Source: Fragilariopsis cylindrus CCMP1102
Lineage: Eukaryota > Bacillariophyta > Bacillariophyceae > Bacillariales > Bacillariaceae
Length of the DNA: 64,000 nt
Assembly (NCBI GenBank): GCA_900095095.1
Contig: FMBT01000324.1
Location: 186,001 to 250,000, forward strand
Direction of reading: 5' to 3'
Shown here: piece after piece, positions 41,885 to 62,887 of the stretch
How the letters are laid out: each line of letters starts with the position of its first letter
Position numbering within the stretch: the stretch's first letter is position 1
Notes under the pieces: generated by a model
What the model was told of the DNA's origin: nothing
The model's input: the letters and a program-made list of their open reading frames with translations, nothing else
Database searches by the model: none
Program-made: the position numbers and the translations under genes

Positions 41885-44529
41885 TTAAAAAGGTGTTGGA
41901 CAGGTTTTTTCAATAATAAATGCCATACTTACAGCATATGCTGTGTATGGCTGTGCCGAGTTTCTTGCCAGAACAGCAACATAAATACCTGGGTCTAGCG
42001 GCCATTCACCATTTCCAGCATGGATTTGGTTCACTGGAATAAGGTTTTTATTGACCTCTTCCCTACAGTTTCGGGTACCACATGCCCAGGACCAAATATT
42101 AGGATTTTGAAGACCATTACCGTCAAAATTTTCATCTACGAGGTAAAGTCCTACCCAATCATCACTGTCAGGGTCGCAGTTTGTCAGGGAAACTTCAACA
42201 TCGACCGATGGTTCATAGCAATCGCTGAGAACTGATATTGCATTAACGCAATTGGTGGGAGGATTCGTAGGAGGAAGGCCCGTTGGGGGCGATGTAAATC
42301 GAACGAGTGGCTGCGTTGTCGGGGATGCACTAGGGGACATGGTAACTGGGGATGCACTAGGTGACATGGTTGTAGGAAGTGCCGTGGGAGACGGAGTAGC
42401 CGCACATTCCGTGCAACACTCACAACCCTGTGCTTCGCAATCAACACTCAGAACTTCCATGTCTTCAAAACGACAAATTTCTTTTGGTAAATTTCCAGTT
42501 AAATCGTTGTTTCCCAGTGTTAGTACTTGTAAATTTCTCAAATCTGAAAGGCTATTGGGAACCCATCCAGTTAGATTGTTGTCGCTCAACGCTAATTTAA
42601 CAAGTGAATCCAAGTCGCCGATGTCCCAAGGGATGTAAGAGCTTAGGAGGTTATAATCCAAATGAAGTTCAGTTAGAGATACCAGCCCCATAAGATCGTC
42701 TGGAATACGGCCAGTAAACTGATTCTTTCCAAGTTCGAGATATTTGAGGTTCGAAATGAGACCAAAGTCAATGTTTATTTGACCACTAAGATTATTCCTT
42801 CGAAGACGCAAGCTCTCTAGATTAGAGAGATCACTAAATGTCGTTGGGATGCTTCCCTCCAACCCGTTACCATCGAGAACAATTTGTTTTAACGAATTGG
42901 ATAGAAGAGAGAGCTCTGTTGGTAGATAACCTCCTAACATCAAATCTTGGATATCAATCCTCTCGTACATGCCGTTATCATTGCAAGGAGCTGCTTCGCT
43001 GGAGGTAAACCAAGTACACTCATCAGTGTATGTCAGCCATCCTTGAGGAAGGTCCTCCATCATTCGACGTTGACGTTGTTGCGGTTGTTCTAATTGAGAA
43101 GAAGGTGAGGCCCAAGTAAACGCAAATACGGCCAATACCCATCGTTGAATGACGCGATCTTCTAAATATTCGTAATAGGTAGGGTCTCGAGAAAGCCAAT
43201 TAGTCGCTAAATATTGTGGAGAATCGATATCGCTCTCGAACCTTGCTGCATCACGTTCATTCACAATCTCTCGACTGATCAAAAGATCTAGTACTTCGGT
43301 GAAAACAATTTCTACGGCTGCGTTTTCCGTCGGTCTGGGGAAGGAGCTGTGTCGTTGTGGGAGGAGGTGATGTCAAAGAGAACGATATCGAAAGATACAG
43401 ATAATAATTGGTATAATCATAAAAACACAGGTTTTGATTCAAGAGTGAAGAGTTCAAAGAGGAAAGATATTCAAAAGAAGTGAGATTTTTAGTGGTAGTG
43501 ATGGTAGTGGTAAAATAATACTTTCAGGAGAAATGAGGACTCCTAAGATTGACTTAAGAAGATATATCACTCACCATTGTCGATTGGACTGTCAGTTGGG
43601 GAAGGAGGAGGTTGTGTTGGATTCCTGATATCGATTGAGTCGTCTTCTTCAATGATGGTGAATCATCCATATCGATCCCAGCATCAAGATCTGGCCAAAT
43701 ATCAAGGATATTGTCATCGTTTTCTTTATCATTGCTCCCACCACCCTCGATAGAAGAATTAATAGATGACGTCGGACTGTTGTTGTTATCGTAATCGCCG
43801 CCACGCATACCTTTAAGTGCTACCCCTAGGGCGATAATTGACGCAAATAATACTAGAGCTAGTACACCAGCGATAATATACACACGCCTCGTTGGAACAG
43901 AAGATGACACATCCTTGCCACTATTAGACCTAACTTTTCCTTCGTCTTTCCTGTAGGATGAAGTAGTGCTTTGCCCGGGAACTCGGATCATGCCAGGAGG
44001 AGTTTCCGGTAAAGTTTCGTCGTCGTTGTTATCATTGTTGTCGGTATTGCCATTGGGAATTTTATCTTCACTCTTGCTATTCCTACTACTACTACCCTTG
44101 TTCTTATGTTTCTTTTCTGGTGTGATGTATTCCTTGAACAATCGGATTCGAGGTTTAGAATCGGCACGACTAGAACCGTTACCAGAAAAGAAGCTCCTCG
44201 TAGTTTCATTGACGGTATCGTTAGCGATAGTACTAACATCATCTTCAACACCAACAATCGACATAGTTTCGTTGGGAAGTTGAGCAACATCTGTTGATAA
44301 AGAGTAACCATCCATGGTATCTGCATCTACATCGCACCGCAACCGTTGTTTTGCCACCATTCATTACACTAGCTAAAGTTTCCCCACCAGCAACACTATC
44401 ATCCATATTGTCTTGATTCTTGACACGTCCAGTCTGATTATCTTCCATCATCATTTTGAAGTAGTTCGTTTCTGCCGTCTCGTTCCAGACGGCATTTTCC
44501 ATGTCGGAACCGACAGATTCGAAATCCAT
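41885..44529 (-). CDS. Type II membrane protein with leucine-rich repeats and C-terminal DWVGLY module
   Basis: Start near 44529 (MDFESVGSDMENAVW). A frame change near 44345-44360 leads into an acidic cytoplasmic region and one helix, VYIIAGVLALVLFASIIALGVAL. A GTGAGT donor lies at about 43575 and the second part is open from about 43375, so an intron is likely although exact ends and phase are unresolved. The second part (to 41885) has the diatom LRR-protein lead-in (SDIDSPQYLATNWL, RVIQRWVLAVFAFTWA), a TDECTWF cap, about seven plant-type LRRs (LESLRLRRNNLSGQI and similar), a Cys cluster (CEAQGCECCTEC), a Pro/Ser/Thr stalk, and a terminal module from CVNAISVLSDCYE to EKTC with DDWVGLY and WSWACGTRNC. 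The module recurs in four neighbours. Probably a cell-surface recognition protein (inference). Confidence 0.68.
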
Positions 44530-45243
44530 TATTTTGAAGTATTTTATATTCTTTATATTTTCCGTTTGTCTTTTTCTTTGTGATCTTTTTCTTCGAAGTA
44601 ACGAAGTTTCGAAACGAATTGCGGATTGATGTTGTTCGACGATAGTAACTAGACTTTTGTAAATCTTCAGAAAAAAGAGAACTCCTCTCGATTTGAAGTT
44701 TGCTCACACCGTACTCGATACAGCACAACGTAGCAATGCAATCGTTCAAAATCGGTAGGAAGAGCACGTCGATCTTCATAAGCCGATTTGTGGATGCGTT
44801 CATTAACGTCTAGTTTTGTGTCACACCAACAGAAATTTTATGCACAAAAATCCACAACAGAAACAAAATGGACGAAAATTTAACGTAAAATGTCATATAT
44901 ACCTATTTTTAGGAACACAGGCGCGCGCATTTTTTCACACGTGGATTGATCTGTTAAATTTCTTACAACGGAAAAAGTAGAGCATAATTCTACTAGGACC
45001 TAAGTTAGTACTGTAGTACATACAACATAGTATTATTATGATTGAGCACTCACTTCAACACCATGTATGAGGTTCTGTGGGATTGATTGATACATAGATC
45101 TTAGTCAGCAAATTTTGAGCACACTACAATAAAGAGCAGCAGCAATGATGTATATGATCAAACATCCCCTGTATTTAGAAAAATATAGACTCATAACATG
45201 ATATATCCTATATATATATATATATATATAATATATATAGGAT

Positions 45244-45284
<41 letters not shown>

Positions 45285-45791
45285 ATTTATGTAGCACAAA
45301 TTGTACATCATGTTACATCAATAGTATCAATGCAATCTGAGTTACAGAATGTCCTACTAGTATAGTACTGCCAAGTAACAGAAATCAGCCACCTAATGTA
45401 GATCAGTTGAGAGATCTATAAAATATGAATGCAGCTTGTATTAATAGAGGACAGAATAATGACTAGAACTCGTATACAAGTTGCTCTGGGAAGAAATGTT
45501 TTCTGGTCCTAAGTAACTTTACTGGATCGTATCTAGCTAGTACGGTGCAGTAGGGGGCAGAAACTAAATAATATGGATAGTAATAAATATAATGCATATA
45601 ATTATGATATTTTTTAATGTAATTTTTTTAGGACACCATCGTCGACAAATTTGATCAAAGAAGAAGATTCTTACATATATACCAAATACAGTTGTACGTA
45701 GATAGGAGAAATTTCAGCATAATCGACACTTCAAATTCAAAAAGGATCCTTGGGGATTTACATTCATTCATTTTTCTTTAATCAATAAATC
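44530..45791. other. Spacer with TA/TG microsatellite
   Basis: About 1.26 kb between two cluster genes. A compound (TA)n(TG)n tract lies at 45209-45284. No coding or RNA signal seen. Confidence 0.55.
45209..45284. repeat. Compound (TA)n-(TG)n microsatellite
   Basis: Two TA blocks joined by AGGAT, followed by a TG block of about 14 units. Confidence 0.9.
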
Positions 45792-46801
45792 TTATACGGG
45801 ACATTCAGTGTTGGAATTATCCACTATACGAAATTCGGGACTACTAGCAAAAGACGAAAAGAATGTAGCTTCACCGTTACGAATTAGGTAAGCACGGTAT
45901 CTTCCCGCAGGGGCTACATCGGTAACTCTTGAAAAGGATAGTACCTCAGTCTGGATCGTTTCAGTACATCGTCGATCACCACAGGTATATAACCATGAAA
46001 CAGAATTATCATCGAATAGATTTTGAGGATCAGAGGAAATGTCATACAGCGCAACCCAGTCGCCGGATTGAGGAGTACATACATTAAAGTAAACTAACAC
46101 ATCCGAACCTCTACCAAAGCAATCTAAACTTAATTCCAATTTATCCACACATTCGGTTTCTTCGGATTCAACTTCTTCTTGATCGAGTACAGTGGAGATA
46201 GTGGGGGTAGGTGCCATGTTAGAACTCGTTATTTTTTCTTCCTCAGTGACAACACTGGTTGTTGTTTCGGCTCCTGAATCAGGTGCCATGTTAGAACTCG
46301 TTATTTCTTCTTCCTCAGTGACAACACTGGTTGTTGTTTCGGCTCCTGAATCAGCATCCATTTGTTGCTGTTCTTGCGCTAGATCCGTGGATGAAATCAT
46401 ATCTGCAGTGTTGATAGATGATGATGTGATGTTGATGTTGATGTTGATGATGATATTGCTGCTTGATCTTGTGTTATAGCTGCATCTTCTTTGCCCATTG
46501 TCATAACAAATGTAATAATCAAACCAATTAGGATCAAATGAAGTGCACAACAAAAACCCAGCGCAATACGGAACCGTCGACTACCTCTAAAATGAGTAAA
46601 CATTCCATGTTTTCCTCCTTTAGAAAATTGGTTGCGGCCTGATAATGGCGATCTCTCCATTGTAAGAGTCGTATCAATCATTGAATCTTCAACATCCATC
46701 AATGCAACTCTTCTGCTGTTTTGATACTCATCATCAAATTCGTCTTCAGCAGGGGGAAGTTGTAAATTACTTATAACGTATTTATCATCATTGTTACTCA
46801 T
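45792..46801 (-). CDS. Type II membrane protein with DWVALY module (cluster member)
   Basis: The first frame starts at 46801 (MSNNDDKYVISNLQLPP), with an acidic cytoplasmic part and a membrane helix (IALGFCCALHLILIGLIITFVM). Just after the helix the frame moves by one base inside an ATCAAC hexanucleotide repeat near 46430-46450, and continues as a Thr/Glu-rich stalk. The stalk holds two tandem 24-residue repeats (DSGAETTTSVVTEEE core; bases 46210-46281 and 46282-46353). The terminal module runs from ECVDKLELSLDCFG to NTECPV with GDWVALY and VSWLYTCGDRRC. It follows the same plan as the other cluster genes. The module faces the lumen or outside if the helix is a type II anchor (inference). Whether the preceding frame at 46798-47508 belongs to it is open. 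Confidence 0.65.
46210..46353 (-). repeat. 72-base coding tandem duplication
   Basis: Two nearly identical 72-base units in the stalk of the cluster gene, in frame (24 codons each). The low divergence points to a recent duplication. Confidence 0.9.
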
Positions 46802-47508
46802 CGGGTACGGTGATGATTCCGGACAACAAATGCAAATGGCATATCACCAGTGGTACCAACGGAGGTATTCGCTGCTGTGGTAACTGGAATTTGACCTTCT
46901 TCTCCTTTAGTTTGAGCAGTATTTGTATCATTTTTATTATTATCAACTGAATAATTAGATACGGGCATCATTTGTGCTCTGGACTTATTATCCTTATTAC
47001 TATCCGGAGTTTTTGCGCTATTGGTATCAAAATCAGCAATATCCTTATTATTACCGGTACTTTTATTTCTAAACTCCTCATCATCAAACTTCTCGTCGTT
47101 ATCATTGTTGTCGTCCTCATCAATAGAATCACTAGTCCATTCATCGTCTGGTGCTGCGTCTGCGTCTTTGTCTTTTCTTTGATTGGTAATTATAGCTGAT
47201 GATGCTTTATCTAAAAACTTACGAAATCGTGGCCCTTTGTTTGCACCAAAGTCCTTCGGTGATATTTCTTTATCTAGAACCGTTTCAAGTTGAGTTAAAG
47301 GCAAGTCTACACCAGCTGCCTCGTATGAATTCAAAATCAGCTTTCGTGAATCTTCAGCAGACATGATCGTACTAGGACTACTACGACTTTGCTCATCCGT
47401 CATTGTGCTACCACTGCTACCATCACCACGCTCAGGAGCAGGAGCAGGAGCAGCACTACAAATCACTGGAGCTGGGTCGGTAGGGATAGGAGGGCGTTGT
47501 TCATCCAT
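46798..47508 (-). CDS. Acidic disordered protein, or N-terminal part of the next gene
   Basis: 236 residues with no recognised fold. It has a Pro/Ala/Ser-rich start, one short helical segment (SAEDSRKLILNSYEAAGVD, then LTQLETVLDKEI, SPKDFGANKGPRFRKFLDK), then an Asp/Asn/Glu-rich tail. Its stop overlaps the next start as CCCGATGAG, an ATGA arrangement rare for eukaryotic genes. The layout of the other cluster proteins (long acidic cytoplasmic part before the helix) suggests both frames are one gene with a one-base shift near 46800. I keep it separate because no junction is evident. Confidence 0.5.
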   Translation of the reverse strand: MDEQRPPIPTDPAPVICSAAPAPAPERGDGSSGSTMTDEQSRSSPSTIMSAEDSRKLILNSYEAAGVDLPLTQLETVLDKEISPKDFGANKGPRFRKFLDKASSAIITNQRKDKDADAAPDDEWTSDSIDEDDNNDNDEKFDDEEFRNKSTGNNKDIADFDTNSAKTPDSNKDNKSRAQMMPVSNYSVDNNKNDTNTAQTKGEEGQIPVTTAANTSVGTTGDMPFAFVVRNHHRTR

Positions 47509-48057
47509 GGTCTATATTTTTATTATTATTATTATTATTATTATTCTATCACTATTACTATTATATTATATTATTATTATGATTTGTAACAAGAGCTGAT
47601 CGCGTTTTGTAAATTACATGGACTCAACTAACTAGCTACGTACTATTAGCACTCACATCTCACATCGTTGTGAGTTCTTGTTTTATGGGAATTGATTTTT
47701 ATTTTGTCGGAGGTTCCCATTACTTACGCGGGAATGCATATTTAAATAGGGGCTCGTCCCTTCCGTTCGGCCAAAGCAAAGCACGTGGTCGCTTAACATT
47801 CCCCCTCGTTTTCTATATCCCCCTTAAATATATCATTCCCCCGAATTTAATTTCAGAATCATTGATCGGATGTGTCAAACTTGAACTTCATACCGTTACA
47901 GGTTACATTTACAGCATGTCGGTATCTTTGCTTGTTCTTGTTGACACCCAACGACGACATGATCGGCATTCTCTATTGATGACGATCATAGGTTTAAAGA
48001 CACAGAACACAATTGTTTTACAACAAGTCTAATACAATATATTATAATTATATCACC
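47509..48057. promoter_or_regulatory. Divergent promoter region
   Basis: Head-to-head spacer between the acidic-protein frame and the lumenal gene. An ATT/ATA trinucleotide run lies at 47517-47580. No element identified. Confidence 0.4.
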
Positions 48058-48708
48058 ATGGAGACTCGACTTCTAGTATCGTTGAATTTCCTACTTCTTC
48101 TAGCCACCGCGTCAGGATTTAGTCCAGTGGTAGTTCATCAAACATCGAAAACTCATTTGAATTTAAAGCGACTGTCGTCAGAAAGAGGTGGAGGATATAA
48201 ACAAGATGGTGTTAATATTATGCCAAGAAGAAAAGACTTTCTCGCTTTACTTGGTACGATCGTAACAAGCTCTATTGTATCGACTAGTCCAGCGATGGCG
48301 GAAGAGATTAAGACGTTTGATCTATCACTTCCATCGTATGATTCTATCAATACGTTGAAAATTACCGATGAAAAGGCATTGGGTGTCGAGACTCCTTCAG
48401 GAAAAGATACGACGACTAAAGTGAAGAAAACGAAAGAGAAAAGAAATGGAGGAGATAACAATCCACTAGGAAATGTTTTACCGTCTATGAACAAGAAAGC
48501 TGTCGTCAAGAAATCCAAACCGCAAAAGACTGTTGAAAAAGCTTCCAAACCGGAAAAAGACGAAAATACGAAACAATGGATATGGCTCTACCTTCCTACT
48601 CTTCGAGTACAGAATCCAAAGAAAAAGATTTCTTCTCTATCCAAAAATAGTTCATTCAATAAAGTATACGGCTTTGGGATTGATTGTCTACTATTATTGA
48701 CTATTTAA
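48058..48708 (+). CDS. Thylakoid-lumen protein of unknown function
   Basis: Start at 48058 (METRLLVSLNFLLLLATASGFSP): a signal peptide with an ASGF plastid-import motif. An upstream in-frame Met at 48013 gives a poorer leader. A second leader follows, MPRRKDFLALLGTIVTSSI to SPAMAEE, a twin-arginine signal with an AMA cleavage site, so the mature protein should reach the lumen. It begins EEIKTFDLSLPSYDSINTLK and continues as a Lys/Thr/Pro-rich linker. The present frame ends in an unlikely WIWLYLPTLRV stretch. One base out of register the DNA reads MDMALPSYSSSTESKEKDFF and stops at about 48651, echoing the LPSY motif. So a one-base shift near 48570 is likely and the true C-terminus may be that second LPSY segment (inference). 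Confidence 0.65.
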   Translation: METRLLVSLNFLLLLATASGFSPVVVHQTSKTHLNLKRLSSERGGGYKQDGVNIMPRRKDFLALLGTIVTSSIVSTSPAMAEEIKTFDLSLPSYDSINTLKITDEKALGVETPSGKDTTTKVKKTKEKRNGGDNNPLGNVLPSMNKKAVVKKSKPQKTVEKASKPEKDENTKQWIWLYLPTLRVQNPKKKISSLSKNSSFNKVYGFGIDCLLLLTI

Positions 48709-49182
48709 CAAATTATTCATAATTAAATCAGTTTACTGTCATATAGCTTTTTCGTACTTGTACTATGATACACGTTAATTTTCTCGATTCGAATTTGTTC
48801 TGATGGAAAGCTAATTGTGCTGTTTAGGATTCTCATGAGGGTTTATGCGCTTTCGATGCAATACTTTGCTGATACTGGTCAGTATTGAACATCAAAAGCC
48901 CACAAAACATCGGAAGGTAATCATATAAATAAGCAAGATGCCATAGATTAAAATTTGTATCAATCATAATAATCTTTCTATACTAGTATAGTAGTTGTGC
49001 AAAAATAATGTTGTTACTGGAAAATGTAATTATTGATACAGTAAGTGATCAAAAAAATAATTGTCGCTCTATCAATTATTCCACACAAGTCAATAGATAG
49101 TCCAACAGTAGTAATAGTACATGTGTTAATAGTCCACTTCTTTAGCGTTAAACCTATAGCATTTTATCTCATTCTATTCCTT
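48709..49182. other. Convergent spacer, nothing identified
   Basis: About 470 AT-rich bases between convergent genes. No RNA gene or repeat recognised. Confidence 0.5.
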
Positions 49183-50522
49183 TCATTGTGCGACGCATTC
49201 AGGAACAATAAAGTTATGCGTAGTGATAACATCATATGGTTGCATACTATCCCGAACGAGTGAAATCTCATAATTTCCTTTCCCAAGATCTGCCAATGTT
49301 AATTGTCCTTCCATTTCATCTGTATAGTCCCATGAATCGTATTCCGAAGTTCCTTCATCATCACTGGTACCTCGTATCCAATACCAATCACCGTCACGTT
49401 TGGTAGCAAAGCAATATTGGACCGTAGAGAATGCAGTAGTAGAGTCATCTTCAACACAATTCGAAGAAACAACAAGACTATGATCTGGGCAATTCTCATT
49501 AGACCAGGGGCTATCTGTAACCTCTGAAGTAACTGCCGTAGTCGATACATCAGTTACCGGTACAGTCTGTTGAGGTGTTGGAGCAAGTGTTGGAGCAAGT
49601 GTCGGATCAGGAGTAGGTGGAGAGGTAGTTTCGACATCAGTAGTTTCGACATCAGTAGTTTCGACATCCGTAATTTCGACATCAGTAGTTTCGCTTTCCA
49701 CTTTCGCTTACATTTTCATTGTTATCGTTGTCTTCTTGTGGAGGGGTGGTTTGGTCAGAGACAGGTGGCGATGTTGCAGTAGATGATGTTGGTCCGTTTG
49801 TTGTGGACGTATCATCAGGTATCGAAGCTATTGTTGGAACTGCTGTTTCTGGTGTTGTAGGTGTTGGACGTGGCGCTGAATCAGACCATAACGAGTCTTC
49901 TTTTTGTTTATTATCGATCTCTTCTTTTAAATCAATTTCTGCATCATTATTTGCACTATTGTCTTCACCAGCAGCATCGTTAGGAGAAATATCGAGATAT
50001 CATCACTGATGTTCGTATTACATCTACAACCTCTGCACCTTCTTCATCGACTAGACCGGCGGCCGCAAAGGATTTCGAGGACTTGTCATTGGTTATTTTC
50101 AGTAATGCCAAATACCCAACAATGCCACTAGCAATCATTATTATAGCAAACGCGATAAGGAACAATATCATTCTCCTCGAACAACAATTACGTCGTTTAT
50201 GGACATCGTCATAATTCTTAACCGCGTCGTATTCAGCGCTAAATTCGACAGCTTCTACTTCAATACCATTTTGACTAAAATCATCAGTAATGATCGTATC
50301 TTCACGAGGTAAATAATGGTCTTGTTCTAATTTGTTTCTGTCAGCACCAGGTTGAACAAATGTTGAAATATTTTCGGTTTCTTCCTTTTCCGCACCACCA
50401 GATTCAAAAAGGTTAAAAGGATTAAATCTAGTGGGTTGAAATACCGATTGACTCAATGAGGAACAATCAGAGACGTCGTCGTCGCTATTAGTATTTGATT
50501 TCTTGCCCTTTCTAAACGTCAT
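49183..50522 (-). CDS. Type II membrane protein, divergent cluster member
   Basis: The first frame (50522-49980) has an acidic cytoplasmic part and a membrane helix (MILFLIAFAIIMIASGIVGYLALL) preceded by CCSRR. A middle stretch (about 49990-49700) reads as a Pro/Thr stalk (SPNDAAGEDNSANND, PTPTTPETAVPTIAS) in a second frame. A third frame (49701-49183) has a TTDVE five-residue repeat, a PTPDPTLAPTLAPTP stalk, and the terminal module CPDHSLVVSSNC to PEC. The module keeps the outer Cys pattern, GNYEISLVRD and the final IVPEC, but has GDWYWIRG where others have DWVGLY. Frame moves lie near 49985 (where an intron is possible; a CTAAC branch-like sequence is present) and near 49700 (probably an indel). 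It is closest in plan to the next gene (51376-52377). Confidence 0.62.
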
Positions 50523-51375
50523 CGTGCGTCTTCGTCGTTATGGGATAATGGCTATGGAGCAAAATTATGCAATGTCTAATCACTTCCTAAAGAACTTTAA
50601 CTTTTCCAGCAGCTCTTCGTTGTTGCTATGTACTGGCTAATCACTTCCTAAAGAACTTTGATTTTCCAGCAGCTCTTCGTTGTTGAACTAACATCAACAG
50701 CACACTTTCGAACTTCGATTTTTTCGCATTTGTCATGCATTTGTCATCGGTGGTTGTTGTATTGTCACATACAAACCTTTTCGTAGGTCCTAATGAACAT
50801 GTATTTTCCCCGCGAAACCAGTCAGGCGCTCAAAATCGGCCACTGCACGAGTCTTAATTTCGACTCATCAAGCAAGCCGTACGTGTTTGGGCATAAATAT
50901 AAATAATTATTGACTACTTTCTCCGAACTGTACTATATACTGTGGTACTGTACCATAGCTGATTTTTACGATGACATTGATATATTATAATATTACTGGT
51001 ATATAAAATTTTACTCTGACTAGTACAGCAATAGCGAATTGCTGCTGCTATTAAAGTAGCATTTAAAAAGCATCTTAATATTCTTCTATTCAATAGGGGG
51101 TTGCTGAGTAGTATTTTTAAAAGTAAGCATGATCCATTTATTCATCCAGAGTTTATTTTTACAATAGGAAAAGTCGATATTAAAATGGATACAAATTATT
51201 ATTGCAATGGTATGATTCGATTCTGATACTTGAATTGCTTTATTAATAACTTAGTTATACAGTAGGATAGATAAAATATATGTAGTATGTATGAAACGAG
51301 AAGAAGATTATCGGAAAGAAAAAAGACATACATCACTCAAGATATTCTTTTTTCTTTCTTCGTCATCTATCTTCT
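50523..51375. other. Spacer with a 61-base tandem duplication
   Basis: Upstream of the 50522 start. A unit CTAATCACTTCCTAAAGAAC plus TTTTCCAGCAGCTCTTCG is present at 50576-50625 and again at 50637-50685, period 61, with only a few changes. The rest is AT-rich with no gene seen. Confidence 0.7.
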
Positions 51376-52377
51376 TTAGTTAGTTGCACATAAGATGGTG
51401 AATTCAGATGATGCAATGAGAGGATACTCATCCATATCCTCATTTCCATTTGAGTACAGTCCGAGCACGTAATTACCTTCCGGAAGACCAAGAACTTCTC
51501 TATCCTGTCCTTCTCGTACCCATCCCCAATCTCTAAATTGAATTGGCGCATATGCCTCAGGAGTTTCAATCCACGCCCAGAATTGATCAGATGTTTCATC
51601 GGCTATACACATTCGAATACTGGTAGATGAAACACCATTATCACAACTAGAGGAAGCGGATATTTCATCGACGGCACATTCAGTAACTGCGAAATCATCA
51701 GTTAAATCATCATCATCGGTACCAGCATCAGTAGCACCTCCTGTTGCAGCATCAGTGACAACTACAGAAGAGTCAATGGTGGGGACTTGCGTCAATTCGC
51801 CAACGGTGGGAACAATGGGGGTTGTGACTACTTCTGGTTCGATTTCTACCGGGGGAATAGTATCACTTGTAGTAAAGACATCTTCTTCGGCGTCGCCACC
51901 AGCAATTGGCGAGTCAAAGGAGGAACCATCATTGGCGGCGTCAGCGTCTGTACCGTCAAGGTCTGATGCGTTTGCAGAAGACCTATTCTGTAATTCTTTG
52001 GAATCCAAGCCTAACTTGATAGCGAGACCTAATAAAATACAGAAGGTAGCAATAGACGCAAAGATTAGCAACATTTTGTTTCGTCTGCTTGAGTCTTGAT
52101 CTTTGTCCTTCTCATCCATTGAGGAATTAGGATCGTCGGATAACATCGAATCACCGACATCGTTAGCTTCATCAGCAGATGGCGAATCTTCAACGGTATG
52201 TGAATCATTTAGTGACAGATTTTGTTTCGTTGATCCTGCTCCTGGAGGTGGAGGAGGTAACGAATCTCCCTCTGTTGAACAATCATCGTCGTTACCATAG
52301 GCTAGATTTAATTCGTTGTCATCCTGTGCCTCCTCAACAACATCCTCTTCTTTCTTCTTTCTACCGAATAGACCCAT
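51376..52377 (-). CDS. Type II membrane protein, cluster member with intact frame
   Basis: 333 residues in one frame and the cleanest copy in the cluster. MGLFGRKKKEEDVVEE is a basic/acidic start followed by an acidic cytoplasmic region with a Pro run. A membrane helix is at about 103-120 (MLLIFASIATFCILLGLAIKL) after SSRRNK, then a Ser/Asp/Thr stalk. The terminal module (CAVDEISASSSC to FTILCATN) has RMCIADETSDQFWAWIE, RDWGWV and LPEGNYVLGLYSNG. It shares with the 49183 copy the W-A/Y-W-I core in place of DWVGLY. No signal peptide is present and positive charge precedes the helix, so the C-terminus should be lumenal or outside (inference). Function unknown. Confidence 0.8.
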   Translation of the reverse strand: MGLFGRKKKEEDVVEEAQDDNELNLAYGNDDDCSTEGDSLPPPPPGAGSTKQNLSLNDSHTVEDSPSADEANDVGDSMLSDDPNSSMDEKDKDQDSSRRNKMLLIFASIATFCILLGLAIKLGLDSKELQNRSSANASDLDGTDADAANDGSSFDSPIAGGDAEEDVFTTSDTIPPVEIEPEVVTTPIVPTVGELTQVPTIDSSVVVTDAATGGATDAGTDDDDLTDDFAVTECAVDEISASSSCDNGVSSTSIRMCIADETSDQFWAWIETPEAYAPIQFRDWGWVREGQDREVLGLPEGNYVLGLYSNGNEDMDEYPLIASSEFTILCATN

Positions 52378-53472
52378 TTTTACTACTTGATTTCTTTGTA
52401 ATTGTACGTGAATTGTGTTGTATCAATAAATGGAAGCTTTATGCATTTCTTTACCTTTCTGGTAATACCTGCCGTTTATTCTCGTTAAACTACGGTAAAT
52501 TTTTCGAGGAATTAGAGAAATTCAATCCAATACAGAACCAACGACGTCAAAACACACGATTGGCCAGCCAACTTCGGCGAGAATGTGACAGATCGATAGC
52601 GCGCGTTGACTGCTCGACTGAAAAACTATTTTTTTGTTATGATGGCACGCACGGTTTCATTTTACTATGAGTTAAATAATGTTAAAAGAATAACAACAAT
52701 ACAATGATCATATCTTGCTATTGTGGATTGGTCAGACTGCAAACAAAAGAGGGTCAGAATGGAAATATCAGCAGAGAAGCAGCATCTTTTAAAGAAGAAC
52801 CTCCAATAGTAGACTGCTTAGTCATGATCTTCTAATCATTGGCTGGCTTACACTTGCCCATCCATTTCACCATTATTTGTTTTTTTCACAAACAGCAAAG
52901 ATAATTCTTAGAACCAAGTATTTGGATGGAGAAACATTTTGGTGCCAGCAATCCTTGCTCATTGAGAGCCTTCAACAATATGATATGATGATTGAATTCA
53001 AAAAATCTTCCAAACCATTTTCAGACTTGATGTACTACACCAATGCAGAGTTAACAAAGGGAATGTAACTGATCCACCTCCACTTTCAAAAATAGGCTGT
53101 ATGGGAAATGAATAGAAAACTCATCCTATGCTTAATTCTTAATAGTTACTTGTTAGGTGGCACTGCATTATTAGTACCTACTACAACTCGATGTCTTGGG
53201 AATAATTTAGAGGATGCAATATTTTAAATTTTTCATATACATTTTTATCCACGTATGAACGGATTTCGAATTTGTTTTCGAAAAGATTTCGTTGTTTCGA
53301 TTTTCTTCAAAAATAACATCGAATCATTAGTCATTTTCATCATCTCTATCGTCTATCATTGTCTATGTCACTGCATATATTGAAAACAATCTGACATATT
53401 GAAACAATTTGAATTGAGAGTTATTACTGTCATACATACCTTTCGAATTATTAAGCTTACTGATAATATAAA
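52378..53472. other. Divergent intergenic region with possible coding remnant
   Basis: Upstream of both the 52377 gene and FKBP12. A plus-strand stretch at about 52877-53068 reads like protein (KYLDGETFWCQQSLLIESLQ) but starts and ends without context, so it may be a remnant. The 18-base string ATTTTTATCCACGTATGA near 53242 recurs near 56176. Confidence 0.5.
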
Positions 53473-53862
53473 ATGGGCGTCGATAAAGAAGATATTTCCC
53501 CAGGAGATGGAACTACATTCCCCAAGAAGGGAGATCAGTTGACGATGCACTATACTGGAAAACTTTCTGAGAATGGAAAGGAATTCGATAGTAGCGTATC
53601 AAGAGGTAAACCATTTCAATTTGTAATTGGTATAGGTCAGGTCATACAGGGATGGGATGAGGGTGTAATGAAAATGTCTCTTGGTGAAAAGGCCAATCTG
53701 AAGATCTCGTCAGATTATGGGTACGGATCACGTGGAGCACCAGGTGCAATTCCACCGAATGCTGACTTAACGTTTGAAGTGGAACTATTGGCGATTGGAA
53801 CTAAGAATTCTCCAAACTACACCGGCAGTAGCAGCAGTGGTGGCAACTGTACTGTCATGTAG
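53473..53862 (+). CDS. FKBP12-type prolyl isomerase with C-terminal CaaX box
   Basis: Peptidyl-prolyl cis-trans isomerase and potential rapamycin/FK506 receptor. 129 residues, no intron, no presequence, so cytosolic. The FKBP fold covers residues 3-108 with the usual active-site residues: Tyr27 (MHYTGKL), Phe38-Asp39 (KEFDSS), Val57-Ile58 and Trp61 ([10 protein letters not shown]), Tyr84 (DYGYGSRG), and Phe101 (LTFEVELL). Unlike the 108-residue canonical protein it has a Ser/Gly tail ending GNCTVM: CTVM fits a CaaX farnesylation box (final Met). Inference: a membrane-tethered FKBP12. It lies among, but is unrelated to, the minus-strand membrane-protein cluster. Confidence 0.93.
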
Positions 53863-54133
53863 ATATTTTTTCATTCGTCCCGTCGACAACTACATTATGC
53901 AGTAATCAGAAATGCTTCATATCCTACTTGCATAGTATTCTTATGTGAATCTATGAAGTTGACACACTCAGAATTAACAACCAAACAATTAATAACGGGA
54001 AAAGTTTTTCGTTCGTGATGAGTTCTATTATTCTTGGTAAAAGTACTATTGAATAGATTATAGATTAAAATATTAGTAGCAGGACATATAATTCTAAATT
54101 TCCGCTTATTGTAAATAGCTAGCTTCATTAATT

Positions 54134-55257
54134 CTAATTACAACTTGAAGATATCCTGAAGGTATTTCCAATCCCGTACGCTAAGAATGTACCATCACCA
54201 TCTGCATTGTCTCGAAGTAAGAGAATTATAAATTCTCCAAAACCTGATACGTTAAACATTGTTGCCTCACCATTACCATCAACAGGATCACTACAAAATT
54301 GATTCCCACATGACCATAACCAAGCAAGAGGATTATCAGAAATATCTGATAACTCCAAGCTCGAAGCAGGGTAAATTCCTATCCAATCAAGGGATGTCGC
54401 ATCACAATTGTTGAATGATATTTCAATATCATCGCCGTTCTCGTAACAAGTATTTGTAGTCGCTATAGATGATACACATGAAAAAGGTGGAGGTGCGGGT
54501 ATTGCTTGTGTTGTTGGTGAAACTGTAGACGGAGACCATGTTTGAAAGTCTATTGTTAAAGGGGTAGTAGATGGATCCAAAGATGGAGATCGCACAGTGA
54601 CGGTAGGCGTAGTGGTAGATATGTAAGTTGGATATGACGTTGGTGTAATGTCATCACTTGGCAGACCTGTTGGTGAGGTCGTGCTTATCCTTTTTGTTGG
54701 AGAGTTTGTAGGGGAGTACGTAGGCGATACAGAAGTCAATGAAGATGATGATGTTGGTACAATTGTTAGTAGGGTACTTTCTTTTCCAGTAGGGGGAGAT
54801 GTTCTTGATTTCGTCGGTGAAGTAGATAGAGGCAATGTGGTCACTACGTCTATTGATTCAGGACTCGAAGGACTACTAGTAGGAGTGTTCGTAGTAGTTG
54901 CGGAGCCAACTGAGGATGATGATGAGGATGATGATGATGAAGACTTTGGTGACATATTTCGGGACACGATTACTGCCGTAAAAATGGAGGCACCAATCAT
55001 AACAAAAATTAAAAATGTCATAATTTGAGTTATCGAAAAACAACATATGAATTTTTGGTTATCATCGTCACTGTCGTTCCTTTCTTTATTACGTTGCACT
55101 GTTGATATCTTTTTTGGACTTTGACTACTAGATGACGAAAAATCATTTTCTCCCATACTTGTGGTCCATGTATATATATTCGAAGGACCTTCCGTGATAA
55201 ATACAAAACCTGGTATTGGCATTGGAATACTTGTGGGCTCTGCTACAATATCTTCGC

Positions 55258-55296
<39 letters not shown>

Positions 55297-55861
55297 TATA
55301 ATTATCAGCAGCAGCATCGCCTTTATTATTCGATTGATTACTTGGACGATTTTGACGCTGCTGCTGCTGTTTCCGGTGGTTCTCCTTCTGATGTTCCTTT
55401 TGCTGGTGTTCCTGCTGCTGCTGATAAGGATATCGCGCTGGATGAAATATTGTTTCTGTCGCAGGTGATAATTCTTCTTCATCATCATTATCATCATCCG
55501 TATCCCCCATCAGATTAACCTTGGAAAGCCCTGGAAAGATCGATTCATCTTCGTCGTCGGTGTAGATATTATCAACGGTATTATTCTCGTCCTGCTGACT
55601 GAGACCGGATGTATTAAGATCTCCAAAAGCAACTGACGTTGGTGATTTTCGTAAGAGATTTGAATCCTTTCGTCGATCATGATGATGGTCTTCGTATTTT
55701 TCGTATTCAAGCATATCACCAAGTGTAGAGTCACCAATTAAACTATCTTCCGTGATACGCTTCGTCATCATGGAACGAAAGTACTCTAGCTCGGGGTTGT
55801 CTGTCCAAACTATAGCTGATTCCACATCAGATATGTCATCAATTACTTCACCGCCGTTCAT
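54134..55861 (-). CDS. Type II membrane protein with DWIGIY module (cluster member)
   Basis: I chose the Met at 55861 over 55945 because the 28 extra residues are only Ser-rich and because DDISDVESAIVW then matches the start of the LRR cluster gene; this gives 575 residues. The cytoplasmic part is acidic with Gln-rich and poly-Asp runs (from CAT repeats). A membrane helix (ITQIMTFLIFVMIGASIFTAVIV) follows ICCFS. A long Ser/Thr/Pro stalk with TSPT and SPTNSPT repeats probably carries O-glycans. The terminal module runs CVSSIATTNTCYENGDD to ISSSC with SFNNCDATSLDWIGIY, AWLWSCGNQFC and EFIILLLRDN. The module closely matches those at 41885 and 45792. Function unknown; a surface-exposed protein is likely. 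Confidence 0.8.
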
Positions 55862-57799
55862 TCTTTTACTGTTGCAATTAGTAAGTTCAGTTCTGGGCAG
55901 CGAAGAAACAGAAGACGACCGAGAGATCGAAGATGAGAAAAACAAGACAATGAGATGGACAATCTACTAGAGAGAGAGTGTGACGAGGAATCGAGAAATT
56001 TCGAAATACATACCGGTAGTAACTGAAGTGAGAAAAGGAGACGACAGCAAAATTTATCGTAAATTTATCTGCTTATTTATTAGACAACGAACACAACCCC
56101 GACTCAATTTGAATTGATTGATACACATACAACGTGAAGAAATGTCGGTCAGCACTATTTGCGACTATTTGCGACTTAAATTTTTATCCACGTATGAGGT
56201 TCAGATTTTGGTACCAGTCAGTGAAAACATGGAATTTTGCGTCCAAACAACTAAGATAAATTTGTGGAAGGAAGAAATTCCATCATCCTTACAGAAAGAT
56301 GAGTGCCCTGCTGCTATAACATTTTCATTTTTACTCTACACTGATTGCATCTCAATCATTGTGCATTCACCCACCCGTATATTGCTATACTTTTAACATA
56401 TACCATACCAACTTGTTTTCTCTGAACATCTTTGAGCTTGTCGACAACATCGCAAATCACTCGGAATCCCTAGCTGAGTGCAATTGGTGTAGATCCAGGT
56501 AATAATTAGCATAATAATTGTGGTTTTTTTCATGTTGTCATCATAATAATAGAAAATGGAAACTGGAATAATCATAGGAAGAATTGCCATCCAGAAGATG
56601 CCAATGTATGTTCCAGCTACTAAATCAATATGCTATTGTTGTCAGAGATTGGGCCGGAGGGGTTGCTACTACTGAAGATTGGTGTTGAATGTGGATCAAC
56701 TGATGCTGACAGCCAACAAAGGATATGTCAACCACTGCATAATGACAATTGTAGTCATCAATTTAGATTCTATTGGATAGTGTCAAAATATGCACTAACA
56801 TCAGTTGCAGTAGATTATGTATCAATTATTGGTGACCTCAGGATAGTCAATTTGATAGGGACTTTGTTTTTCATGGGTAGATTGGAATATCTACATAGTT
56901 GGTTGATTGTATTTCTACAAAATAGTCTGTGGGCATAATTTGAGAAGAGAGGATACAAAATCTAATGCTACCCTTCCTGTAGATAGAAGTCCGGTGGTGG
57001 TAGATATTCCTTTAATTGATGTCTGTGCAGCAATACTACTCATACAATCAACGACCAACCAACCATTATCATTCCAAATTGAATGGCATGGATCATGGTG
57101 GAAGGAGATCGCATGTGCAATGACAATTATGATGAAGGCAAAGACAAAGACAACAGCAGCAACAAATTGATACAAACTACAACTCCTATTTGATGACATG
57201 AGTTGCTGTCTCATATCTTAATTATATAAGCCTCATCTCACAAAGTAGTGACATTTTAAACAAAAATAGAAAATAGAAATAATGCATAATATAAAAAAAT
57301 GTAAAATGGAAATGGAGATTTGGGGGAGACGGTTGTCTTGATTTTTTTCGTAATGTTTTGCGCGAAAATTGATTCATTCTTTTTTTTCAAAGGAAGCAAG
57401 GAGTGACAGCAGTGTTGCTTTTTTTTACTGGAGTTGTACTTCGTAGTTTATTCGATCCCGTACTGAAAGTAACGTTACTGGGAGTACAGCTTGCATGAGC
57501 ACTGTAAATAATTGTCATAACACTATCGGATAGTATTAACAATGATAGCTTCTTGCTACTTGATGTCTCCTTACAAGTATCAGATATCTAATATAATTGA
57601 ATTACATCTATTATCACTTTAATTCTCCCCGCCGCTGTCGATTGGTTGATTCGGTCTCGGCAAGATTACTTTGTTAGACAGAGTTCGCAATAAACGATAT
57701 ATCAAATTCCGTCGACAAAAAAATATTGAATACCGCCACCGACCGATTAAAAACTATCTGACTTTTTAAATACTGTGCACAACAACAGCAACAACAACA
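55862..57799. other. Spacer with possible degenerate membrane-protein gene
   Basis: About 1.9 kb. On the minus strand, frames at 57214-56915 (hydrophobic FVFAFIIIVIAHAIS, then STTTGLLSTGRVALDFVSS) and 56590-56393 (ILPMIIPVSIFYYY, IIMLIITWIY) look like parts of a multi-pass protein, but the sequence between them has many stops. I treat this as a likely decayed gene with low confidence. The rest is AT-rich and includes the promoter of the NAK-type kinase. Confidence 0.35.
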
Positions 57800-60219
57800 A
57801 TGTCGGGTGGTGACGGTGGTCTTGGGACAACTCTCGTTGGCGAAAAAATTACTATTGGTCAGCTGAATGTGACTGTAACGAATCTAATCGGAGAAGGTAA
57901 GTTGAAAAGTGATGACATGACAGGACGAGGGTTATTTGTATCTTACAAAAATTCAGCAGAGTATATCTCACCATTAAGGAAAATATGCGTCGACACGAAA
58001 AATGACAATGACACCCAACTGCATTGTAAATGACACGTCACAGGTGGTTTCTCGTATGTATATCTTGTCAAGGACACCGACGGTGGAAACCTGGTTGGTT
58101 CATCACATCATTCGAATAATGAAAGAGAAGTATCACCCAATAGAAACAACACTGGATCGGAAAAATATAATGACGGAATACCTAAAGGAGGGCCCTTAGT
58201 ACTAAAAGTAACATCAATACACTCTAGAGCACAGCGTGATATTGCAGAAAAGGAAGCCAAGTTACTATCTAGACTATCGCATCCGTCGATTGTAAAAATG
58301 TACAACGCGTGTTACAGGACAGCATCTCAACAGCAATCTGGAAAGCGTGGGAAAGATCAATCTAATACAGGAAAAGAACGACCACAGCATTTAATATTAA
58401 TGGAATATTGTGAGGGTGGTCACGCTTTGGATGTATGTAACAAATTAGCATCACAAGGACAACGATTTGATCTTAGCACGTTGATCATTGCATTTGGACA
58501 AATATGCAACGCGGTTAGTTATTTACATGCACAACGACCACCTATTGTTCATCGTGATCTAAAGCCTGTAAATTTTTTAGTTAAAAATGGTGCATATAAG
58601 CTTTGTGATTTTGGATCGGCTGTGTTTGGTCACGTCGATTTACGAACTCCGAAGGCCCGTTCCGATGCAGAAGATGTCGTTCAAAAAACGACGACACAAA
58701 TGTTTCGAGCACCTGAAATGATCGATCTTTTTGTGACCAAGAAACTAACGCAATCGTGAGTAGCTCTTTTTTTGTTCTGCTAGCTTCTTTTTTGGTGCAT
58801 GAATGTTGATTGAATCAATCTGATGGTTGAATGTGTTGAAGTCGTGATGTTTTATTGATTTGTTGTTGAAACCTAACGGGTGTAAGTGTGATTCGCATGA
58901 CACTAATATATTGATCATTCTATTGACTTATAAATTGATCGGTACTTGCACAAAAATTCAAACAATATTATAAAACCAGAACTGATGTGTGGGCTCTAGG
59001 TTGCTGCTTATATTCCCTAGCTTTCCTGCAAAATTGCTTCGAGGAAGGTTCAAATCTTGCTATCCTGTCTAGAAAATATACAATCCCAGACGACAATCCG
59101 TACGGCGATGGTTTGGTTGAGCTGATAGATAGAATGTTAGCAGTTGACTATAAAGCCCGGGCAGATATGACAGAAGTTATCTTATGTCTCTCAGCTGTAT
59201 ATTCGGGACGACCACTACCGCCGAGAAAGAAAAATACTCGATCTTCGAAGTCAGATGAAAAGGAGTCAAGTAAGAAATCGGTAGAAACTACCCAAAAAGA
59301 GACAATAGGGAAATTTCGAATCGACTCTCAAGGATATCAGGAGAATATTTATGATCCAACCAAAGCAACAGAAGCGAAAAAGTTGGCTTCCAATTCCGTA
59401 GCAGCTCGACGGAAACGGGCCGCTGCATCATCATCATCATCATCGTCAGCCGTCACCTCTAAAATTTCGGGTGGCCCGTCTGCAACAATCGCTACCGCCA
59501 CTGCCGCACCTACTCCGGTACCAGCGCCGGTGGGATTACCGTCATCAAAAGATTCTCTTACTTTTAGTTCCATTCAAGGGTCAGAAGAGAACAATAATTC
59601 GGATGTTGCCTTTTCATCCTTCGGGGACCTAAGTCGTGAGTTTTCCACTAGTCAAAGTAAAGGGGACGTTGCTTTTTTCCAAGCTTTTGATAACGCCAAA
59701 GAAGGACAAAAACCTAAAGGGAATGATGGATTCGATGCTAACGCTTTCGGAGCTACAGGGTGGGACGAAAAGGCTGACGGCAATGGGATAAACAAAGTAC
59801 AAACCTCATCGACGAATAAAAACGATAATCTTGATAGTAACGGAGAAAAGACGAAGAAAGACGGATCAGACAATCCCCGTACAAAGTCACGGAGGAAACG
59901 AGAAGGGGGAGGGCGGTCTCGAGCAAATCGGGATGTCGAAGCAGGAATGGAGACTTTAAAAATAAACAATAATGATGACGCTGGAGCTGGTGCTGGTGCT
60001 AGTCGACGACCAAGAAGTTCTAGAGGTGAAGAAGATAAAGAATCGAGGCTGCGTAAAAGATCGGGAAGTTCGAAACGGAAAGCACGAGGACCGCGACCTT
60101 CTACCACAAAAGCAGTTGATGAGACAGGGATTTCCGTCGATGACGACGAAAAGAAACCTTCGAAACAAAATAACATTCGGAATATATTCAATCGAAAGCA
60201 AGGGAGTCAAGATCCTTAA
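57800..60219 (+). CDS. NAK-family protein kinase (AAK1/GAK-like)
   Basis: Three exons, 57800-57896, 58044-58755 and 58980-60219, join to 682 residues (introns 147 and 224 bp). Intron 1 splits the glycine loop: NLIGEG joins GGFSYVYLVKD. Other motifs are VLKVTSIHS (catalytic Lys), EKEAKLLSRLSHPSIV, ILMEYCEGGHALDV, IVHRDLKPVNFL, KLCDFGSAV and TTTQMFRAPEMIDLF. Intron 2 precedes TDVWALGCCLYSLAF. The T-x5-RAPEMIDL activation segment and the hydrophobic CCLYSLAF are Numb-associated kinase hallmarks. After residue about 330 the chain is Ser/Lys-rich and basic, with Phe-containing clusters (AFSSFGDL, FFQAFDNA, FDANAFGATGWD). Family members phosphorylate AP-2/AP-1 medium chains in clathrin-coated vesicle transport. 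That role here is inference. Confidence 0.92.
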
Positions 60220-60805
60220 GCTGGGGAATTACTACCGTCGAAGCTCGAAGCGAGTTGGCTAATTTATGTCTATTACTACACTAGTTGTAATTTATAGTTG
60301 ATAAAACTGTAGCTACTATATAGTATCATATATCTGTCTCTATTGATTGTCGCACCAATGCACACTGTACCATCTAGTCAACACGGAACCATAATACCAG
60401 GTTGTAAAATGGTAGGCAACATCATCAGTCATTTACCTGGCAACGTAATCTATCTCTAGTATTTATGATATTCCCGTTTTACCTAAACCCTCACTTGCCG
60501 ACAAAAAGTAATAGGTCCAAAGCATAAGTAAAGTGCTACGAGATCAGTGGGACAATTGGTTGCATTGTCATACGCACATAGTAGTTTTTCATAATAGTGT
60601 CTTGTTTGTGCATGCAAAACAACGTCGTTCGTTATTGAGATAGATAGATATTGATTGATTGATTGATTGATTGATTAATTCTGGCTCAGCATTTGATTCC
60701 TATCTATCACTGTAATTGATTTATGGTAGTGTCTCGTTTGTGCAGCAACACTACGTCGTACTACTACTGCACTGCAATTGGAACATCGTTTGTTGGTGAG
60801 ATAGG

Positions 60806-60837
<32 letters not shown>

Positions 60838-61346
60838 CTGGTCCAGCATTCTTCATATCTAATACTATAATCAATCTATGATTTTGTCTCGTTTGTGTAG
60901 CAAAACTACATCGTACTACTACTGCACTGCATGCAATTGGAATACTAGTTTGAATAACTACTTTAATTTCTTATAATTATATTATTATCATGGTTATGAA
61001 TCTATAGTATATGCCTCATGGAAGTCTCCGTCAAGTAGACTTCTCTCTGGGTAATGGTTGTGGTAGTACTTAATAATAGTATTTGATTGATATAATCAAG
61101 TAGGAAAAGCAACTCTCTTCTCCCCTTGTCGTCCCCATAGAACCGAATCGGACCGGGCGTTCTTTTTTAAAACGATCGTAGATTTATATTTGTTGCTCTC
61201 AGTTGTTGTCGTTATCAAAGTTTGTGCTGCCCTTTCAAAGAGTCAGCAGAATACAATGTAAGAAATGATAGAATCAAAGGTTTGATTTCATTCATGGATC
61301 TGAGTTGCTGTACAGTACGATCTGTCGTCACATATTGACGAGAAAA
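60220..61346. other. Convergent spacer with degenerate tandem repeats
   Basis: About 1.1 kb between convergent genes with no coding signal. It contains the repeat array at 60596-60945. Confidence 0.6.
60596..60945. repeat. Degenerate tandem repeat array with ATTG microsatellites
   Basis: Three partial copies of a unit of about 130-160 bases. Each has a GTGTCTYGTTTGTGCA block (60596, 60728, 60884), and an ACGTCGT or ACTACTACTGCACTGCA block follows. A GATTGATT microsatellite (60652-60676 and 60808-60836) and TTCTGGYYCAGCATT complete the unit. Confidence 0.75.
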
Positions 61347-62887
61347 TTAAAAGTCGTTGCTCAATGTCAAGCTCGCTACTCCTCCGTAACGGCTGCTAGT
61401 GTACTTTTTGTTAACTGCACGAAGCTCCTGTGCCGCATTAGCCTTCTCGTTCATGACAGCTTTAGCAATCGGCATGATATCTTCCTCGCGATATTTAGCA
61501 TATTTCAATAGCGTTGGACTCCAAGAATTGCGACCAACTGTGCGCCGTGCGATGAATACCGCCGCTGCTGCAAGTTGACTTGGAAGGTAATGAAGTAAGT
61601 TGTAGGACTGAAGAGTACCATCTAAGATGTAACAAGAGAGTTGCACAATACGCTTATCAGCATGAGCAGCTTTCAAGAATCGGACCAAGAATGCATGAGC
61701 AGAAGGGATGGTGATATTGTATTCAAGTGTTTTCAATATCTTTTCTTCCATTTCAATAATCTGGAAGAAGATAACAATAAGAGAAAGAAATGAAATCGTT
61801 GAGAAACACGAAACGAAATGAAATAAAACCAAATAGGGTATACAATAGTGTTTTCAAGTACAGCTACGTTAATATTGTACATACCTCGGTACGAGTATAA
61901 GCGCGGTCGCAAATATACACCAAATCCCGTAGCTCAGGTGGATAAATCTCTTCATACTTCGAAGCGATTAAGAGAGAGGTTACACCAACAAGTTGAAGTC
62001 TAGGACGAGATACCTCTTGACGTTCGAGGTAACGATCGATTAGATTAATAGTAAGATACAAAGTTTCCGGTACCAGCTTGAACTTCAAATGAACCTCGAC
62101 TAACCAGTCGACAAGAATGGATCTCATACGTTCGTTGATGTGGGTTTGGTTGTCCATGTATAGTGGACGGACAGAAGTGCTACCTTCCTTGAGTCGAAAA
62201 TGTTCGTACATATCCTGGACGTATTCAGTTGCACAGAGTGGATCTTCTGCATCACGTTCATCGATGTTATCCGATGGTCCCATTTGATAACTAGATGGAT
62301 TGGAAGCGATGACTGGATTTTCTGGTTGAGTGCTGATAGTTCTATGCATGACACGTTGACGAGACTGAAGTTCTCGTTGTTGATTAACCTCCTCTGCTGG
62401 ATCGCGTTGCTCCAATACGATGGGCTGGTGGTTGTTGTGCTGATAGCTATTTGGTTGTTGTCGATTTACTGGAACGAACTCGGTACGGGCCTCACGCTTT
62501 TCTGGTAAAACATTTTGACCAGGCTTGCCACTTTTTTCGACAGGGTTAGCGTTTGTTAAATCCTGTTAATAAAATAAAAACAGAGAGAGTAAAAGTATGT
62601 GAGTTTACTTGACTGAGTGTCGATAATATATTGAAAGTCTCGCTACTCTAGTAAACCACTGAACCAATAAAGTCGAATGGAAATCGAAACGCTACCGACA
62701 GACGACGGAACGTCCTCCCAAAAAGCATCGTCGTTATTCGTATCTAATTGTACTGATGTATGATCTCAACACCCGAATGAAATGAATTCATCTTCAACTT
62801 AAAATAACTCACTCTGAATGCCCCACGCCGAGAATTATTCCCAGTGATTGATTGCGATCGCGTATTAACGGTATTAGAATGAAACAT
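61347..62887 (-). CDS. B-type mitotic cyclin
   Basis: Regulatory subunit of a mitotic cyclin-dependent kinase. Exons 62887-62813, 62562-61885 and 61760-61347 join in phase 0 throughout (GTGAGT and GTATGT donors; introns 250 and 124 bp) to 388 residues. Exon 1 ends in RRGAFR and exon 2 begins DLTN, giving RGAFRDLTN, a destruction box with Phe in place of Leu. The N-terminal 110 residues are disordered. Cyclin_N follows: YVQDMYEHFR, then MRSILVDWLVEVHLKFKL and ETLYLTINLIDRYL, then LQLVGVTSLLIASKYEEIYPPEL. Cyclin_C begins IIEMEEKILKTLEYNITIPSAHAF and holds SQLAAAAVFIARR. The length is typical of B cyclins. Expected to act in nucleus and cytoplasm at G2/M and to be degraded by APC/C. Confidence 0.93.

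What the first reader, a model, noticed from the sequence alone, without database searches (positions are those of the whole stretch)
41885..55861. Local expansion of type II membrane proteins sharing a Cys-bounded DW(V/I)G(I/L)Y module
Five same-strand genes in 14 kb share one plan: acidic cytoplasmic tail, one helix, Ser/Thr/Pro stalk, and a terminal module of about 110 residues. The module has a first Cys, S/T-x-x-C near the start, DW-V/I-G/A-L/I-Y, W-x-W/Y-x-C-G-x3-C, a G-x-Y/F-x3-L-x-R turn and a final Cys. I know no named family for this whole architecture. The DW-I-G-x-Y core resembles beta-sandwich modules (SKICH-like, or those at purple-acid-phosphatase N-termini), so an adhesion or ligand-binding role is possible. 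This is the best candidate here for an undescribed system.
Basis: partly seen in the sequence, partly recalled or inferred. Interest (0 to 1): 0.78.

Follow-up and report, generated by a model that had tools for sequence, protein, structure and literature searches.

The report
Disulfide-rich surface domain family in alga
Five neighbouring genes of a diatom-like alga end in one related, cysteine-rich domain that also occurs elsewhere in the genome beside receptor repeats and peroxidases, so it is probably a reusable unit for binding or docking outside the cell, but its function is untested.

Summary
The modules are real: a profile scan places exactly five in the window (E 6e-36 to 1e-14; shuffled or reversed windows give nothing better than E 0.83; the five are themselves in that profile). 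Held-out tests support three strongly (70-73 bits, 0 of 2000 shuffles as high) and two weakly (M3 13.4 bits, 0 of 2000; M4 7.9 bits, 4 of 2000). The quoted DW(V/I)G(L/I)Y and CGx3C motifs are in 3 of 5. Acidic tail and helix hold for all five, but gene 1 also has leucine-rich repeats. "Local expansion" is doubtful: the module sits at five or more other places, including two kinds of heme-peroxidase gene, and the cluster copies are not recovered as a clade, though one origin is not excluded. Cysteines tend to be lost in pairs, which suggests three disulfides, 1-25, 11-end and 57-62, with two imperfect cases. The predicted fold is a moderate-confidence seven-stranded beta-sandwich. SKICH and fn3_PAP matches stay below curated cut-offs. 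Most likely an extracellular docking or recognition domain; ligand unknown.

The parts
41888..42250 (-). module M1 (six Cys), end of gene 1
42407..42829 (-). leucine-rich repeat region of gene 1 (limits from the LRR_14 match, itself just below its cut-off)
   Evidence: LRR_8 65.2 bits, LRR_1 55.1 bits, both over cut-off; LRR_14 37.6 of 40
43554..44529 (-). 5' part of gene 1 (N-terminal tail, helix about 43821-43877); frame breaks in the window copy, open in C547
45795..46151 (-). module M2 (six Cys), end of gene 2
46505..46561 (-). predicted membrane helix of gene 2; likely ATG at 46801
49186..49491 (-). module M3 (four Cys), end of gene 3
49980..50522 (-). 5' part of gene 3 with membrane helix about 50115-50171; join to M3 not resolved
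51376..52377 (-). gene 4, one open frame of 333 aa: acidic tail, helix about 52018-52074, stalk, module
51379..51678 (-). module M4 (four Cys), predicted seven-stranded beta-sandwich
54134..55861 (-). gene 5, one open frame: acidic tail, helix about 54968-55024, S/T/P stalk, module
54137..54478 (-). module M5 (six Cys)

Best explanation
The module is a reusable extracellular, disulfide-stabilised beta-sandwich domain (Ig/Fn3 class, SKICH-like in its core motif). In the window it stands at the tip of single-pass proteins with the N-terminus inside: acidic tail in the cytosol, helix, extended stalk, module outside. Elsewhere it is joined to heme-peroxidase domains, and in gene 1 to LRRs. The best-supported mechanism is that it docks on or recognises a partner outside the membrane (a wall or mucilage polymer, or a partner protein), so that the same unit positions receptors and enzymes. 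Shown here: homology among modules, domain combinations, pattern of Cys loss. Inferred: disulfides, fold, topology, secretion. Conjectured: binding and its ligand.
For: Leave-one-out profiles score 9 of 11 modules at 37-76 bits, best shuffle 12.2. One search with the C324 module finds three window modules (M5 E 1.1e-7, M2 2.8e-7, M1 5.5e-6) and both C730 modules (5.6e-6, 0.0023). Combinations: LRR, Peroxidase_2 E 2.7e-27, peroxidase E 4.9e-13, ShK E 0.016 below cut-off. Cys 57+62 absent together in M3 and M4; Cys 1+25 absent together in C84 and C730b. Acidic tail, helix, basic residues before it. Seven-strand model of M4, with Fn3 and Ig domains among the Foldseek rows at TM 0.4-0.6.
Against: No Foldseek match reaches E 0.001; the best for M4 is 0.012, to a proteinase inhibitor. 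Both models rest on five sequences. M4 is close to the shuffle background. The C324 search did not list M3, M4, C80, C84 or C91. Two exceptions to paired Cys loss: C80 lacks the Cys after CG but has one at 41; C730a lacks Cys 25 but has a Cys immediately before the place where I cut the module, perhaps in its leader. No expression, localisation or binding data; no signal-peptide predictor was available.
Confidence: 0.5

Rival explanations
1. A true but divergent member of the SKICH / fn3_PAP group: an accessory domain that packs against its neighbour domain, as the N-terminal domain of plant purple acid phosphatases does (recalled), and binds nothing outside.
For: SKICH E 0.006 in the C324 protein; the only genome-wide SKICH match is at that same place, E 0.04, 20.1 bits; fn3_PAP E 0.15 in gene 1 and C324.
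Against: All below curated cut-offs; no SKICH or PAP chain among 6 PDB sequences matched by the 10-module profile up to E 10 or 4 matched by the C324 module; in genes 2, 4 and 5 no other domain was found over its cut-off for the module to pack on (gene 2).
Confidence: 0.2
2. A structural or mineral-related role: the modules face the lumen of secretory or silica-deposition compartments and help to organise the wall, without specific ligand recognition.
For: A family of silicalemma-associated membrane proteins (SAPs) is described in diatoms (PMC5647440, only the start of the abstract seen, in the listing). Similarity in composition to those is recalled and not tested.
Against: LRR and peroxidase combinations fit sensing or surface chemistry better; no localisation data either way.
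Confidence: 0.15
3. Only M1, M2 and M5 are one family; M3 and M4 are a separate short Cys-bounded domain that looks similar by composition.
For: M4 7.9 bits with 4 of 2000 shuffles as high; M3 and M4 as queries find only themselves and their C547 copies in the genome; M3+M4 form their own branch (95/91).
Against: M3 beats all 2000 shuffles; M3 and M4 match each other (0 of 2000 shuffles both ways); shared C1, C12, third Cys, W, G-x-Y, F, last Cys; same place at the C-terminus after helix and stalk.
Confidence: 0.2

Closest known systems
SKICH domain (Pfam PF17751)
   Same: size about 100 residues (profile 103 positions), DW-I-G core; beta-sandwich fold of SKICH recalled
   Different: matches stay below the gathering score (17.5 of 23.4 bits; 20.1); SKICH is cytosolic and lacks these Cys pairs (recalled)
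Fn3-like domain of purple acid phosphatases (PF17808)
   Same: DW-I-G core; extracellular beta-sandwich (recalled)
   Different: best 12.6 of 33 bits; no metallophosphatase domain among the Pfam matches of the proteins scanned
Diatom membrane LRR proteins (MRP2 and MRM2 of Pseudo-nitzschia multistriata)
   Same: gene 1 has LRRs, a helix in its 5' part and no kinase match; PMC6261938 (passages read) describes MRP2 and MRM2 as transmembrane LRR proteins without recognisable kinase and suggests pheromone receptors or adhesion molecules
   Different: gene 1 carries the module at its end; its sequence was not compared with MRP2 or MRM2
GDPH-domain proteins of diatoms
   Same: hypothesised role in secreted adhesive proteins (PMC7335047, passages read), one of the roles considered here
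   Different: no GDPH string in the 10 protein frames checked; no GDPH profile was run

Membership tests
SKICH (PF17751) | whole-protein score over Pfam gathering cut-off 23.4 | tested here: not met
   17.5 bits in C324, 10.2 in gene 5; genome-wide best 20.1
SKICH (PF17751) | DW-I/V-G/A core | tested here: inconclusive
   5 of 11 modules: M1, M2, M5, C324, C91; a short motif is no proof of membership
fn3_PAP (PF17808) | score over gathering cut-off 33, followed by a metallophosphatase | tested here: not met
   best 12.6 bits; partner domains are LRR and peroxidases; the genome-wide search found nothing, nor did its 14 controls, so it is uninformative
Ig/Fn3-class beta-sandwich | seven strands in two sheets, structural match to solved members | tested here: inconclusive
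   seven strands and Fn3/Ig rows at TM 0.4-0.6 but no E <= 0.001; pLDDT 69
membrane LRR protein without kinase (gene 1) | LRRs over cut-off, membrane helix, no kinase | tested here: met
   LRR_8 65.2 bits (cut-off 27), no kinase among matches up to E 10, helix in the 5' part; that the two parts are one gene is inferred
GDPH diatom domain | GDPH motif | tested here: not met
   string absent from 10 of 10 frames checked; C91 not in that check; no profile was run

The most novel reading that the evidence does not exclude
An undescribed algal extracellular domain family with a three-disulfide code (1-25, 11-end, 57-62), reused in stalked single-pass proteins, an LRR protein and secreted heme peroxidases, which serves as a common docking tag that brings receptors and oxidative enzymes to the same site on the cell surface.
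Probability: 0.27. Interest if true: 0.6.

Novelty: new variant of a known kind. Interest (0 to 1): 0.38.

Why it matters
How diatoms recognise mates, bacteria and surfaces is poorly known at the level of receptor domains (my general knowledge). A domain shared by stalked membrane proteins, an LRR protein and peroxidases would give a handle: one profile to list candidate surface proteins, and a disulfide pattern that can be checked on one recombinant domain. If it turns out to be an ordinary Fn3-like spacer, the finding is of modest interest.

Tried and rejected
Rejected: recent tandem expansion. M1, M2 and M5 are 27-31% identical to each other and 30-34% to the C91 copy. On an unresolved tree the cluster label needs 2 changes; 4% of 200 bootstrap trees make it one group; one origin is not ruled out, and 31 of 500 label shuffles are as low, so there is a hint of clustering. 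Rejected: chance. Rejected for now: filing under SKICH or fn3_PAP.

Led nowhere: prokaryote and virus collections gave no relative (M5; C324: 54; C730a: 55; M1: 56, 57); these searches find close relatives only. Plasmids were tried with M5 alone and phages with the C84 module alone, without a match. None of these collections is meant to hold eukaryote genomes, so this says nothing about other diatoms. NCBIfam gave nothing for 9 of 11 modules but one irrelevant E 0.18. PDB sequence searches: none with 5 modules, 4 with the C324 module (best E 1.1), 6 chance-like with 10 modules (best E 0.035). Gene 3 splicing: many GT-AG combinations keep the frame, and some remove the helix, so no model is claimed. 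Weak genome hits on C337, C346 and C350 (E 0.03-0.28) were not resolved; one search listed no closed frame of 200 codons in L034. Papers: the listings (open-licence PMC; titles and starts of abstracts, capped lists) show no description of this module; four forms of the core hexapeptide were sought and one unrelated paper holds one of them. Most subscription papers are not held.

One search also showed a Cys just before my cut in C730a, which weakens the paired-loss argument; I lowered the novel reading from 0.30 to 0.27 for that.

Rows dropped before counts: the C91 module, lacking its first exon, is but not in profile A3, nor and the string check; C730b was not either. The five window modules are members of A3, so one search shows number and place, not independent homology; one search is the held-out test, in which each peroxidase-linked module was tested with its two close relatives left in. 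Copies on C547, C241 and C253 were counted as the same genes as the window's and C730's. BLAST E-values used a tiny database size and are not quoted.
Full report
What is there. Five modules on the minus strand, 41888-54478, align over their whole length with eight invariant residues. A profile scan of six frames finds five; the next match has E 0.51, and three shuffled windows and one reversed window give nothing better than E 0.83.

Are the five one family? I built profiles without the tested module. M1, M2 and M5 score 70-73 bits and the six canonical copies from elsewhere 37-76; the best of 2000 shuffles for any of these nine is 12.2 bits. M3 scores 13.4 bits (0 of 2000 shuffles as high) and M4 7.9 bits (4 of 2000); M3 and M4 match each other with 0 of 2000 shuffles as high in both directions. 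So three are certain, and two are probable, divergent relatives of each other and of the rest.

Motifs and plan. The hexapeptide core and the CGx3C pair are in 3 of 5 window modules; M3 and M4 lack both. From the likely ATG the tails of all five genes are net acidic, weakly so in gene 2 (13 acidic, 11 basic), and one helix follows.

The family elsewhere. Single-protein searches of the same genome find the module at C324, C80, C91, C84 and C730, besides near-identical copies on C547 (the window locus again), C241 and C253 (C730 again). The tool says such counts are lower bounds. C324 and C80 are single open frames with an acidic tail, a helix and a terminal module, like genes 4 and 5; C324 has an added Cys-rich stretch before the module. 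C91 has a leader-like helix, an ShK match below cut-off and the module apparently split by an intron. C84 has a module before a Peroxidase_2 domain (E 2.7e-27). C730 has a module in one frame and, after one stop codon in the same frame, a heme peroxidase domain (E 4.9e-13) with a second module; that these are one gene is inferred.

Gene 1. Its 3' frame carries LRRs (LRR_8, 65.2 bits against 27) and ends in M1. A stretch of its LRR N-terminal part has 23 matches in this genome at E <= 0.001 (two are the gene itself and its C547 copy, and some others look like duplicate contigs), so gene 1 belongs to a larger LRR family, whose members were not checked for the module.

Local expansion? The module tree is poorly resolved (1 of 8 inner branches starred). 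M3+M4 join (95/91) and the peroxidase-linked modules join (91/95, drawn open). The five cluster copies are one group in 4% of 200 bootstrap trees; starred branches do not rule out one origin, and only 31 of 500 label shuffles cluster as well. Old duplication or gathering fits; recent expansion is not supported.

Disulfides. M1, M2, M5 and C324 have Cys at 1, 11, 25-26, 57-64, 62-69 and the end. M3 and M4 lack exactly the fourth and fifth; C84 and C730b lack exactly the first and third (and no Cys within 25 residues upstream). Paired loss suggests bonds 57-62, 1-25 and, by what remains, 11-end. Against it: C730a lacks the third but has a Cys directly before the place where I cut it, perhaps in its leader; C80 has an extra Cys at 41 and lacks the one after CG; C91 is incomplete; and the losing copies are relatives of each other, so this is about one event per pair.

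Fold. AlphaFold2 with the five window modules gave pLDDT 61, pTM 0.56 for M5 and pLDDT 69, pTM 0.61 with seven strands for M4. Foldseek on M4 lists a proteinase inhibitor, PH1083 and SoxY first, then many Fn3 monobodies, cytokine-receptor and Ig domains and glycosidases, top E 0.012, none at 0.001 (50 of 1285 rows seen); on M5 nothing better than 0.17. This supports a beta-sandwich of Ig/Fn3 class and no particular family.

The duplicate contig. C547 aligns to window 43102-63018 in three pieces at 96.7, 98.5 and 99.9% identity. Gene 2 is open there and differs here by 5 nt in a microsatellite; gene 1's 5' part is open there and broken here; the end of M3 is broken there and open here. These may be allelic differences or assembly errors; I cannot tell which.

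How it most likely works. N-inside topology is inferred from basic residues before the helix in genes 1-4. The stalk then projects the module outwards. Recurrence of the same module with LRRs and with peroxidase domains argues for a docking or recognition role outside the cell; no ligand evidence exists. As precedent, PMC6261938 (passages read) proposes receptor or adhesion roles for two LRR membrane proteins without kinase, and PMC7335047 (passages read) reports LRR proteins among the tandem duplicates of Seminavis robusta. PMC8027222 held none of the four terms looked for.

Verdict. A real family with a plausible extracellular role, below the cut-offs of Pfam and without a NCBIfam match of note, weakly SKICH-like. 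The title claim of a local expansion with one architecture needs correcting.

Noticed in passing
43102-63018 versus G000 C547:1-20000 (L028, L029): A second contig carries the same locus in three aligned pieces of 96.7-99.9% identity; 77 of 89 difference events lie in 43.1-49.0 kb, among them small indels in coding sequence; haplotig or assembly error.
   Followed up: partly
G000 C730, C241, C253 (L035, L038, L039): Three contigs carry near-identical copies (99-100% over the first module) of a module / heme peroxidase / module arrangement; the peroxidase part was read on C730 only.
   Followed up: partly
46798-47508 minus: Open frame of 236 aa, overlapping the likely start of gene 2; no Pfam match at E 0.001; own gene or upstream exon unknown.
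   Followed up: no
about 53480-53860 plus: By eye an FKBP-type prolyl isomerase lies between genes 4 and 5 on the other strand, so the cluster is interrupted.
   Followed up: no
46209-46354 minus: A 72-bp tandem duplication in the stalk of gene 2 (off-diagonal matches of 74 bp at 98.6%).
   Followed up: no
27771-29861 minus: Frame with PP2C phosphatase and cyclic-nucleotide-binding domains together.
   Followed up: no
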